Below, piece by piece: positions 10,807 to 13,147 of a stretch of 42,157 bases of DNA. A program made the position numbers and the translations under genes. Positions within the stretch are counted from its first letter, which is position 1; each line of letters opens with the position of its first letter. Origin of the DNA: Clostridia bacterium (lineage in GTDB: Bacteria; Bacillota; Clostridia; Oscillospirales; CAG-272); NCBI GenBank assembly GCA_017481495.1, contig JAFUPC010000061.1:1-42157 (forward strand). The letters run 5' to 3'. Below the pieces are notes generated by a model, which was given only the letters and a program-made list of their open reading frames with translations, was not told the DNA's origin and searched no databases.

Positions 10807-10835
10807 TTTACAAAACCCGTTTCTTGTGTTATAAT
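10807..10835 (+). promoter_or_regulatory. Sigma-A promoter of the structured RNA
   Basis: TTTACA (10807-10812) and TATAAT (10830-10835) are separated by 17 bp on the plus strand. The predicted start (about 10841) coincides with the 5' end of the long closing stem of the RNA. It is divergent from the ktrB promoter. Confidence 0.85.
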
Positions 10836-10840
10836 GATAG

Positions 10841-11009
10841 TGCCACATAATGAAATATTGATTTGTCCTAAGAAGCGTACATTATTTTACTTTGGTAAAA
10901 ATGTAGGCTCTTTCTCCTATGCGCTCATAGGCAGATCAATTCATTGTGTGGCAGCAATCGGAGCTAAACATTTTTATAAATGCGCAGCTTCGGCTGCGCA
11001 CTTTTTTTC
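10841..11009 (+). ncRNA. Structured RNA of unknown class (sRNA, 6S-like or riboswitch/attenuator leader)
   Basis: About 168 nt between a near-consensus promoter and an intrinsic terminator. Pairings by eye: P1, 14 bp with one G-U, 10841-10854 with 10940-10953; a three-base bulge (10855-10857); P2, 8 bp, 10858-10865 with 10932-10939; P3, about 11 bp, 10878-10890 with 10895-10905, loop TTTG; P4, 6 bp, CCTATG 10916-10921 with CATAGG 10926-10931, loop CGCT. The P4 loop can pair with AGCG (10874-10877), a possible pseudoknot. The 3' side of P1 (10948-10955) can instead pair with the terminator 3' arm (10993-11001), and CGGAGCT (10959-10965) with AGCTTCG (10986-10992), so a switching attenuator is possible. 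The long closing stem, open centre and small hairpin in the 3' strand also recall 6S RNA, but the apical arm is far shorter. I recognise no named class. Confidence 0.72.
10981..11008 (+). terminator. Intrinsic terminator with UUCG tetraloop
   Basis: An 8-bp perfect stem, TGCGCAGC-TTCG-GCTGCGCA (10981-11000), is followed by C and seven T residues (11002-11008). It ends the structured RNA. Confidence 0.92.
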
Positions 11010-11114: not shown

Positions 11115-11612
11115 ATGAATCCCACCGAAACCCATTCCACCCCACAAAAAGAACCGTCCCACGGCGCGCGCCTGTGGCATTACGTCGCCCATACGGCGCG
11201 GGAAAATCACGATACCGCCGCCGCGGAAGACGCTTACCGCCGCATTCTGGAAGCGGATGCCGATGACTGGGAAGCGAATTTTTTCGTTTCCTGCTACCGT
11301 TTTCTGCACAGCCTGCCGCCGGACACGGATGCGCTTGCGAACCTCTACCGCGTGACGGAGCAGACACTCCCGCGCATTGCATCGCAGTGCCCCGCCCCCG
11401 ATGACCGTCACGCCGCCGTTTCCGCCGTGTCTTCCGGTCTGTTTCTCATTTCCCGAACCCTGTTCCGCACTTCCGCCGAAAATCCCGCACATGCCCAAGC
11501 CGCCGTTGATCTCATCTGCCGCTTCCGCAACGCGGTGGAAAAACAGCTGGGGGAGGAATACTGTATGGATATTGCGGATGCGTTTGAGATACGGGAAGCG
11601 GAATTTTCCTGA
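11115..11612 (+). CDS. Hypothetical protein, TPR-like helical
   Basis: A 165-residue protein that I do not recognise. It is predicted to be soluble and mostly helical. Residues about 35-58 (TAAAEDAYRRILEADADDWEANFF) resemble one tetratricopeptide repeat, and the remainder contains Ala-rich helices with two Cys. There is no signal peptide or membrane segment. The start ATG (11115-11117) has AGGAGAT about 8 bases upstream; an in-frame extension upstream runs through the terminator hairpin and is not credible. No separate promoter is visible between the terminator at 11008 and the gene, so it may be expressed by read-through from the structured RNA. That would make the RNA its regulatory leader. 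The function is unknown. Confidence 0.7.
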   Translation: MNPTETHSTPQKEPSHGARLWHYVAHTARENHDTAAAEDAYRRILEADADDWEANFFVSCYRFLHSLPPDTDALANLYRVTEQTLPRIASQCPAPDDRHAAVSAVSSGLFLISRTLFRTSAENPAHAQAAVDLICRFRNAVEKQLGEEYCMDIADAFEIREAEFS

Positions 11613-11743: not shown

Positions 11744-13147
11744 TTGTTTATCGGACGTCAGAACGAATTGCAGATGCTGGAAGACCTGTACCGGTCGCCG
11801 GATTTTCAGTTTCTGGTTCTGTACGGGCGGCGGCGCGTCGGAAAAACATCCCTTTTACAGGAGTTCAGCCGACGGCACCGCACCATCTTCTATTCCGCAC
11901 AGGAAAAAAACGACACGCTGAATTTAACGGATTTCTCCGCGGCGGTACAGAACTATTTTGACAAAACCACATTCGGCACGTTTTCCGGCTGGGAAACGGC
12001 GCTGGATTATGTCGGTAACAGAACCACGGCGGAGCGGACGGTACTGATCATCGACGAATTTCCGTTCATTGCCGGTGAAAATCGTTCGATCAAGAGTATT
12101 TTACAACACACCATCGATCATTCCTGGAAAGAAAAAAATCTGTTCCTGATCCTTTGCGGTTCCAGTGTCAGTTTCATGGAAAACGAAGTGATGGGATACA
12201 AGAGCCCGCTCTACGGACGCGCAACCGCACAGTACGAGGTGCTTCCGTTTGATTATTACGACAGCGCGCTGTTTCTGCCCGGCTATTCCGTCACGGAAAA
12301 GCTCATGACATACGGCATTCTCGGCGGAATCCCCTGCTATCTGCAGAATTTCAGTGACCGGAAAACCCTTGCGGAAAACATCAGCACACAAATCTTCCGC
12401 ACCGGTGCCTTTCTGAAAGAAGAACCGCAGGTGCTTCTGAAAATGGAACTGCGCGAACCGGCTGTCTACAACAGCATTCTGGAAGCCATTGCAGGCGGTG
12501 CCAGCCGTCTGAACGAGATCTCCGGAAAGATCCATGAAGACAGCGGCAAATGCTCCAGATATATCGACACGCTCCGTTCCATGAAGCTGGTCGACAAGAT
12601 CATGCCGTGCGGTGAAGAGGATTCCCGGAAAAGCATTTACCGGATCACGGATCAGTATTTTCTATTCTGGTATCATTTCATTTTCACGGAAAAAAGCTAT
12701 TTTGAGATCATCGGCCCCACTTCCGCCGCTGAGGAGATCCTGACGCCGGAATCGTTTTCCAATTATATGGGATCTGTTTTCGAGCAGATTTGCGCACAGT
12801 ATATGACCCGTCTTGCAAGGCTGAAAGCACTGCCGTTTATTCCGCACAAAATCGGAAAATGGTGGGGAAACAATCCCGCCCGACGCGGTCAGGACGACGT
12901 TGACGTTCTGCTGTTGGGTAGAAAAAGCGCGGAAGCCATCTTCTGCGAATGCAAATACAAAAACGAAGCATTTGACAAAAAAGAGTTTGATGATCTCGTC
13001 ACCGCTTCCCTTGCGTTTCCCACCGTTGAACGCAAATATTTCTATCTGTTCAGCAAAGGCGGCTTCACACAGTGGATCAAAGAGGAAGCCGCAGGACGTG
13101 ACGACATCACGCTTGTAACGCCAGACGACCTTTTTTCCGTCTCATAA
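11744..13147 (+). CDS. AAA ATPase with C-terminal PD-(D/E)xK-like (DUF234) domain
   Basis: A 467-residue protein of the archaeal-type ATPase_2/DUF234 family. Opening residues FIGRQNELQMLEDLY are followed by Walker A in YGRRRVGKTSLL (about 28-39) and Walker B in VLIIDEFPFI (about 102-111). A winged-helix-like region follows (about 250-300, SRLNEISGKIHEDSGKCSRY). The C-terminal part has RGQDDVDVLLLG and IFCECKYKN (about 385-410), the D...ExK layout of PD-(D/E)xK nuclease-like domains. Cellular role is not established; these proteins are scattered and mobile, and some are suspected in defence or DNA transactions. The start is TTG at 11744, chosen because GAAAGGAGG lies 8 bases upstream and the protein begins exactly at the family motif. 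Its own promoter is at 11641-11669. Confidence 0.88.
   Translation: MFIGRQNELQMLEDLYRSPDFQFLVLYGRRRVGKTSLLQEFSRRHRTIFYSAQEKNDTLNLTDFSAAVQNYFDKTTFGTFSGWETALDYVGNRTTAERTVLIIDEFPFIAGENRSIKSILQHTIDHSWKEKNLFLILCGSSVSFMENEVMGYKSPLYGRATAQYEVLPFDYYDSALFLPGYSVTEKLMTYGILGGIPCYLQNFSDRKTLAENISTQIFRTGAFLKEEPQVLLKMELREPAVYNSILEAIAGGASRLNEISGKIHEDSGKCSRYIDTLRSMKLVDKIMPCGEEDSRKSIYRITDQYFLFWYHFIFTEKSYFEIIGPTSAAEEILTPESFSNYMGSVFEQICAQYMTRLARLKALPFIPHKIGKWWGNNPARRGQDDVDVLLLGRKSAEAIFCECKYKNEAFDKKEFDDLVTASLAFPTVERKYFYLFSKGGFTQWIKEEAAGRDDITLVTPDDLFSVS

What the first reader, a model, noticed from the sequence alone, without database searches (positions are those of the whole stretch)
10807..11009. Unassigned structured RNA with own promoter, terminator and switching potential
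Seen directly: TTTACA-N17-TATAAT, then a 14-bp closing stem that begins at the predicted start site, a second stem, two inner hairpins and a UUCG-capped terminator with seven T. The P4 loop CGCT can pair with AGCG in the junction (possible pseudoknot). The 3' side of P1 can alternatively pair with the terminator 3' arm, and CGGAGCT can invade the terminator 5' arm. No promoter is visible for the small hypothetical gene at 11115. This is the layout of a riboswitch-type attenuator. Alternatively it is a short 6S-like RNA, but its apical arm is far too short for a normal one.
Basis: partly seen in the sequence, partly recalled or inferred. Interest (0 to 1): 0.82.

Follow-up and report, generated by a model that had tools for sequence, protein, structure and literature searches.

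The report
This stretch encodes one copy of an RNA family that matches nothing in the Rfam 15 catalogue, recurs up to 29 times per genome in Clostridia (many of them from animal guts), usually lies just ahead of a gene, often one for a cell-surface protein, and is predicted to switch those genes on or off by changing which of its strands pair.

Summary
Window 10807-11008 holds a sigma-A-type promoter, a structured RNA beginning at P1 and an intrinsic terminator. It matches no Rfam 15 family. Homologues are abundant: 94 of 146 genomes of its family, 86 of 247 of its order, 67 of 293 of its class, and none of 248 other genomes in a phylum-wide draw; one genome has 29 copies. The promoter lies at a fixed distance. 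In 126 of 155 copies an ORF starts within 60 nt of the terminator; lipobox proteins are enriched (33 of 126 against 45 of 629).

Each is better matched within an RNA than between RNAs; control pairings are not or hardly.

The layout is that of a transcription attenuator: a:b + c:d would read through, b:c + d:e would terminate. Transcription, switching, signal and direction are untested. In the window the next gene, an orphan, starts 106 nt after the T-run, farther than usual.

The parts
10807..10835 (+). promoter TTTACA-N17-TATAAT with TG before the -10
   Evidence: scan; -10 box starts exactly 10 nt before the RNA model start in 128 of 155 copies
10841..10854 (+). P1 5' strand at the predicted transcript start
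   Evidence: fold; P1 covaries
10855..10865 (+). internal loop (AAUAU region) and P2 outer 5' strand
   Evidence: fold; P2 outer z -30.7 and -21.9
10873..10890 (+). strand a: P3 5' arm, its first part also pairs with f
   Evidence: a:b; a:f; place
10891..10896 (+). P3 loop UUUGGU
   Evidence: GG/GGU conserved
10897..10911 (+). strand b: P3 3' arm plus CUC loop (AAAAAUGUAGGCUCU)
   Evidence: a:f z -20.8 and -14.7
10932..10940 (+). P2 outer 3' strand
10940..10953 (+). P1 3' strand (shares one base with P2)
10953..10959 (+). conserved linker AGCAAUC
   Evidence: conservation
10960..10975 (+). strand c: pseudoknot partner of b and 5' arm of the antiterminator (GGAGCUAAACAUUUUU)
   Evidence: b:c 14 pairs in the window
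10981..10992 (+). strand d: terminator 5' arm and antiterminator 3' arm
10992..11000 (+). strand e: terminator 3' arm
11001..11008 (+). C plus T-run of the terminator
11115..11612 (+). next gene, 165 aa, no relative in 38 other genomes; possible target, unusually far downstream

Best explanation
The window carries one member of an RNA family that matches no Rfam 15 model and recurs across its bacterial class, and it is predicted to work as a transcription-attenuating leader that switches by strand exchange. Transcription likely starts at P1. Strand b (P3 3' arm plus CUC loop) can pair with a (P3) or, as a pseudoknot of typically 13-15 bp, with c just after P1. Strand c can instead pair with the terminator 5' arm d (antiterminator), and d with e (terminator). 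So a:b + c:d would let polymerase through (ON), and a:f + b:c + d:e would end transcription (OFF). I infer that a ligand recognised by the conserved core (AAUAU loop, GGU loop, AGCAA linker) tips the balance, most likely by stabilising the pseudoknot and so switching the gene off. Shown: the sequences, the alternative complementarities and their matching within each RNA, the place ahead of genes. Inferred: transcription, switching, direction, ligand. Unknown: the signal.
For: No Rfam family at cut-off in the window or in 40 homologue loci. Distribution: 94 of 146, 86 of 247, 67 of 293, 1 of 249, the own genome. Promoter at fixed distance in 128 of 155. ORF of 40 codons or more within 60 nt in 126 of 155, 97 with a good Shine-Dalgarno, against 45 and 5 on the other side. 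Strand-swap tests, A3 (n 91) and A5 (n 53-54): a:b z -12.3 and -10.1, b:c -14.7 and -7.9, c:d -9.4 and -3.5, a:f -20.8 and -14.7, d:e -12.2 in A5. Pair counts for P1, antiterminator and terminator exceed all 500 shuffles on every overall measure. Own loop pairs better than the average other loop in 31 of 33 rows with a deviant linker. In the window the two folds are nearly balanced, -62.7 against -61.5.
Against: No transcript or read-through data. The tree-based test gave ten pairs below E 0.1, all in P1, P3 or the terminator; no b:c or c:d pair reached it alone. Short loop-linker pairing not significant in A5 (z -0.9, 888 of 5000 swaps as good). With other segment limits c:d in A5 was z -2.9, 10 of 5000. 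For b:c two of five overall measures are reached by shuffles (45 and 72 of 500). Control a:d in A3 z -2.2, 62 of 5000, and reversed loop against linker z -2.0, 130 of 5000. Swap tests do not remove relatedness. 29 of 155 copies have no ORF of 40 codons within 60 nt; the window's gene starts 106 nt after the T-run. The target genes share no obvious pathway.
Confidence: 0.72

Rival explanations
1. The strand exchange is real, but the gate is an RNA-binding protein or a base-pairing RNA that acts in trans on P1 or on the CUCUUUUC loop, rather than a small molecule or ion.
For: P1 is conserved in letters although it is paired; the targets are diverse; one common factor could serve up to 29 copies.
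Against: P1 does change in a compensated way at several positions, and conserved letters also lie in loops and the linker, as expected of a binding pocket. No candidate factor was sought.
Confidence: 0.2
2. The product that matters is the terminated RNA itself, a small RNA acting in trans; read-through is incidental.
For: Own promoter and closed 5' stem; tandem units and an array of four without an evident gene between the units (by eye); 29 of 155 copies without a near ORF.
Against: Matched antiterminator and pseudoknot and start codons at a median of 21 nt with Shine-Dalgarno are not needed for a small RNA.
Confidence: 0.1
3. A self-contained stochastic switch: co-transcriptional folding splits transcripts into terminated and read-through without any signal, giving mixed expression of surface genes.
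For: Nearly balanced folds in the window; enrichment for surface-type proteins.
Against: Conserved unpaired letters are hard to explain without something that reads them.
Confidence: 0.08
4. A 6S-like RNA.
For: Single long closed hairpin with own promoter and terminator.
Against: No 6S match in Rfam scans; many copies per genome, mostly just ahead of genes.
Confidence: 0.01

Closest known systems
Riboswitches that act by transcription termination (for example SAM-I, preQ1, fluoride; recalled)
   Same: 5' leader, conserved core, antiterminator against intrinsic terminator, gene directly downstream
   Different: No Rfam riboswitch model matches; core, pseudoknot b:c and target genes are its own; no ligand known
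trp-type attenuators (recalled)
   Same: Overlapping strands used in turn, so that one helix decides the next
   Different: No conserved leader peptide: 64 of 155 copies have some Shine-Dalgarno-preceded ORF of 8 codons or more, with scattered lengths
T-box leaders (recalled)
   Same: Multi-copy leaders with terminator and antiterminator in Bacillota
   Different: No T-box match in the Rfam scans
Candidate structured RNAs of human microbiomes, PMC8040213 (passages read)

Membership tests
Any Rfam 15 family | covariance-model score at or above the curated cut-off | tested here: not met
   window: 0 matches; 40 homologue loci: only tRNA genes elsewhere in the loci at cut-off. Sub-threshold matches overlapping the RNA: three in the window, Phe_leader 30.8 of 55 in L035 and MIR2646 27.8 of 245 in L062
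Transcription attenuator | mutually exclusive antiterminator and terminator upstream of a gene | tested here: met
   c:d and d:e share strand d and are both supported; gene within 60 nt in 126 of 155
Transcription attenuator | observed condition-dependent read-through | not testable with these tools
Riboswitch | direct binding of a small molecule or ion by the RNA | not testable with these tools
   needs a binding assay; only a conserved core is seen
trp-type (peptide) attenuator | conserved leader peptide ORF | tested here: not met
   64 of 155 with some candidate ORF, lengths scattered
T-box | match to the T-box covariance model | tested here: not met
6S RNA | match to a 6S covariance model | tested here: not met

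The most novel reading that the evidence does not exclude
A major undescribed riboswitch class of gut Clostridia that sets the cell-surface repertoire from one common signal, with up to 29 copies per genome. Its OFF state is a pseudoknot b:c locked by a U.A-U triple helix made by three strongly conserved tracts (U5 of a, A5 of b, U5 of c), and tandem copies act as gates in series.
Probability: 0.3. Interest if true: 0.92.

Novelty: new variant of a known kind. Interest (0 to 1): 0.8.

Why it matters
An RNA this abundant (94 of 146 genomes of the family; 29 copies in one genome of another family) in a much-studied gut class, conserved in both core and expression platform, points to a signal that these bacteria use to choose surface lipoproteins, BspA-type repeat proteins and adenylation enzymes. 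It offers a covariance model, a list of likely targets and a testable strand-exchange mechanism for genes of mostly uncultured bacteria whose regulation is otherwise unknown.

Tried and rejected
A short loop-linker pseudoknot of about 5 pairs: extended to b:c, because the short form was significant in A3 but not in A5 while the long form was in both. The first version of that test was distorted by one row without loop letters and is not used. 6S, T-box and known riboswitches: no Rfam match. Leader-peptide attenuation: no conserved ORF. Phage origin: two consensus patterns had 0 hits in viral contigs; a looser one hit two contigs that the model did not confirm. One unverified fecal 'Bacteriophage sp.' scaffold carries a clear copy (140.9 bits) and a second record covers 38% of the query; no plasmid record matched. 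The third match in the own genome (contig C122) is read as a plain terminator. My guess that the window gene 11115 is related to the gene behind L055 was tested and failed. My idea that long copies lose the U-tract of strand a in favour of one further upstream was not borne out: 9 of 11 copies of 200 nt or more have an extra upstream U-tract, but several keep one in a as well. Alignment A2 held 25 antisense matches among 67 and was not used. Ten A3 rows of 200 nt or more were dropped before the A3 swap tests, because their loop is misaligned; one such row was dropped from A5.

Paper searches listed no title or abstract that describes this RNA. PMC8040213 was read in passages only; all other papers were seen as listings. 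bioRxiv and most subscription journals are not held, and supplementary files could not be opened.

Full report
What is there. The window carries, on the + strand, a promoter of extended sigma-A type (10807-10835), a structured RNA and an intrinsic terminator whose T-run ends at 11008. The RNA folds far better than shuffled sequence (z -7.2). No Rfam 15 family reaches its cut-off in the window; at E up to 10 the stretch gives three sub-threshold matches. On the other strand upstream lies a TrkH-type transporter gene; downstream are a small gene (11115), an ATPase_2/DUF234 gene and, on the minus strand, an RNA polymerase Rpb1-family (beta') gene.

It is a family. A blastn search of 59 genomes found E-values of 1.5e-5 or better in nine genomes besides the own one; most of the weaker hits look like chance. 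Reading the stretches showed the same plan repeatedly: promoter, P1, inner hairpin, linker, terminator, then often Shine-Dalgarno and start codon. A covariance model from ten copies matched 94 of 146 genomes of the family at E 0.1 or better. A second model from 101 copies matched 86 of 247 genomes of the order and 67 of 293 of the class at E 0.001 or better; these draws include the own genome and some that had supplied training sequences, but 64 of the 67 lie outside the order. A phylum-wide draw gave 1 of 249, the own genome, which also serves as a specificity control. Six genomes searched in depth gave 29, 29, 18, 14, 14 and 11 matches at E 0.001 or better; two of the second 29, one of one 14 and one of the 11 are antisense shadows, so 29 distinct places is the highest count. 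The own genome has two full copies. In 40 homologue loci Rfam finds only tRNA genes elsewhere at cut-off; two sub-threshold matches overlap the RNA.

A promoter-RNA cassette. In 155 copies the -10 box starts exactly 10 nt before the model start in 128; 142 have at most one mismatch to TATAAT against 44 after shuffling; TT of the -35 and TG before the -10 are present in 91-95%. Transcription therefore likely starts at the first letters of P1. Cassettes also occur in tandem, about 50 nt apart, each with a promoter-like sequence by eye, and once as an array of four.

Alternative helices. P1 and the terminator covary strongly. A home-made tree-based test in the manner of R-scape (13,366 column pairs, 30 simulated alignments) put ten pairs below E 0.1: six in P1, two in P3, two in the terminator; no b:c or c:d pair reached that level alone. 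For whole helices I compared the pairing energy of each RNA's own two strands with that of strands swapped between RNAs (5000 swaps each) in 91 rows of A3 shorter than 200 nt and in 53-54 further copies (A5, not used to build the models). No swap matched the own pairing for a:b, b:c, c:d, a:f and outer P2 in both sets and for d:e, tested in A5 only; with other segment limits c:d in A5 gave 10 of 5000. b:c has mostly 13-15 pairs (median 14; lowest 8 in A5). Controls a:d, b:d, a:e and b:e show nothing in A5 (z +0.7, -1.4, -0.5, -0.2); in A3 a:d gave z -2.2 and b:d z +2.5, reversed loop against linker z -2.0, and the two P2 strands against the linker +0.1 and +1.1. Pair counts for b:c on A3: 91.7% of cells paired against 87.5% in shuffles, 73 cells with changes on both sides against 27.6, covariation score 0.275 against 0.195, each 0 of 500; pairs with double changes (45 of 500) and further pair types (72 of 500) are reached by shuffles. 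Of 33 rows whose linker lacks GGAG, 31 pair better with their own loop than with the average other loop. The short loop-linker form alone was not significant in A5. P1, P3 and the terminator are in the models, so alignments lean towards them; b:c, c:d and a:f are not. The swap tests do not remove relatedness, so they are strong but not formal proof.

In the window b (10897-10911) and c (10960-10975) form 14 pairs. Duplex energies, with slightly longer flanks, are a:b -13.5, b:c -16.7, c:d -9.1, d:e -16.6 and a:f -9.5; the antiterminator fold (-62.7) and the fold with the terminator forced (-61.5) are nearly balanced before the pseudoknot is counted.

What it is likely for. In 126 of 155 copies an ORF of at least 40 codons starts within 60 nt, 97 of them with a good Shine-Dalgarno at a median of 21 nt, against 45 and 5 on the other side of the RNA. 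Of those 126 proteins, 33 have a lipobox and 63 a signal-like N-terminus, against 45 and 148 of 629 background ORFs (Fisher p about 1e-8 each). These are simple rules of my own; the background was called with slightly different length and start rules and still contains some genes that follow such RNAs. Pfam on 97 downstream proteins of at least 50 residues, each cut at 300: 17 BspA-type LRR_5, 5 AMP-binding, 3 WG repeat, 3 Flg_new, 3 SHOCT and a long tail. So the set leans to the cell surface but is mixed, with many small proteins of unknown function.

Mechanism. The overlapping helices form a relay: if a:b holds, c is free to make the antiterminator; if b pairs with c, d is free to make the terminator and a can pair with f. 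The inference is a leader that terminates or reads through according to which strands win. What tips the balance is unknown. I favour a ligand bound by the conserved core that stabilises b:c (OFF); protein gating is the main rival. The strongly conserved U5 (a, 82-99% per column), A5 (b, 89-96%) and U5 (c, 99-100%) tracts would fit a U.A-U triple helix; this is untested.

Limits.

Novelty. Rfam 15 and the paper searches made here show no description; the supplementary lists of PMC8040213 could contain parts of it and could not be opened.

Noticed in passing
G000:C111:35437-35648 (L249 1501-1712): Second full copy in the own genome, ahead of a small zinc-ribbon membrane protein, with a longer P2 region and an extra U-tract.
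   Followed up: partly
L008, L036, L114, L116, L118, L127, L129, L249: Subclass of about 200-215 nt with an insert, often ending ACCC followed by a U-tract, upstream of strand a; role unknown.
   Followed up: partly
L033, L035, L119, L120, L123, L130, L317: Subclass with GGGAAAA...TTTTCTCTC in place of the usual loop letters; in L035, L120 and L130 (and in L008 and L103) it or a sister copy precedes a small Cys-rich protein (ITGIELTPGEP...CCCDECD).
   Followed up: no
L312-L316, L317, L280-L282: Tandem promoter-RNA units about 50 nt apart, an array of four, and tandem copies with a shortened reading frame between them, as if the cassette duplicates and the first gene decays.
   Followed up: partly
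L309 2000-2155 (MT835845.1): Clear copy in an unverified fecal 'Bacteriophage sp.' scaffold without annotation; may be prophage or host DNA.
   Followed up: partly
L120 2558-2634, minus strand: Sub-threshold match to Gut-1 RNA (32.2 of 50 bits) about 200 nt upstream of the RNA.
   Followed up: no
L003, L044, L051, L071, L075; L272 by eye: AMP-binding (adenylation-type) enzymes, most beginning GYPSIDKPW or similar, are recurrent targets.
   Followed up: no
window 11744-13147: ATPase_2/DUF234 gene with a promoter-like sequence just ahead of it by eye; not related to the finding.
   Followed up: no
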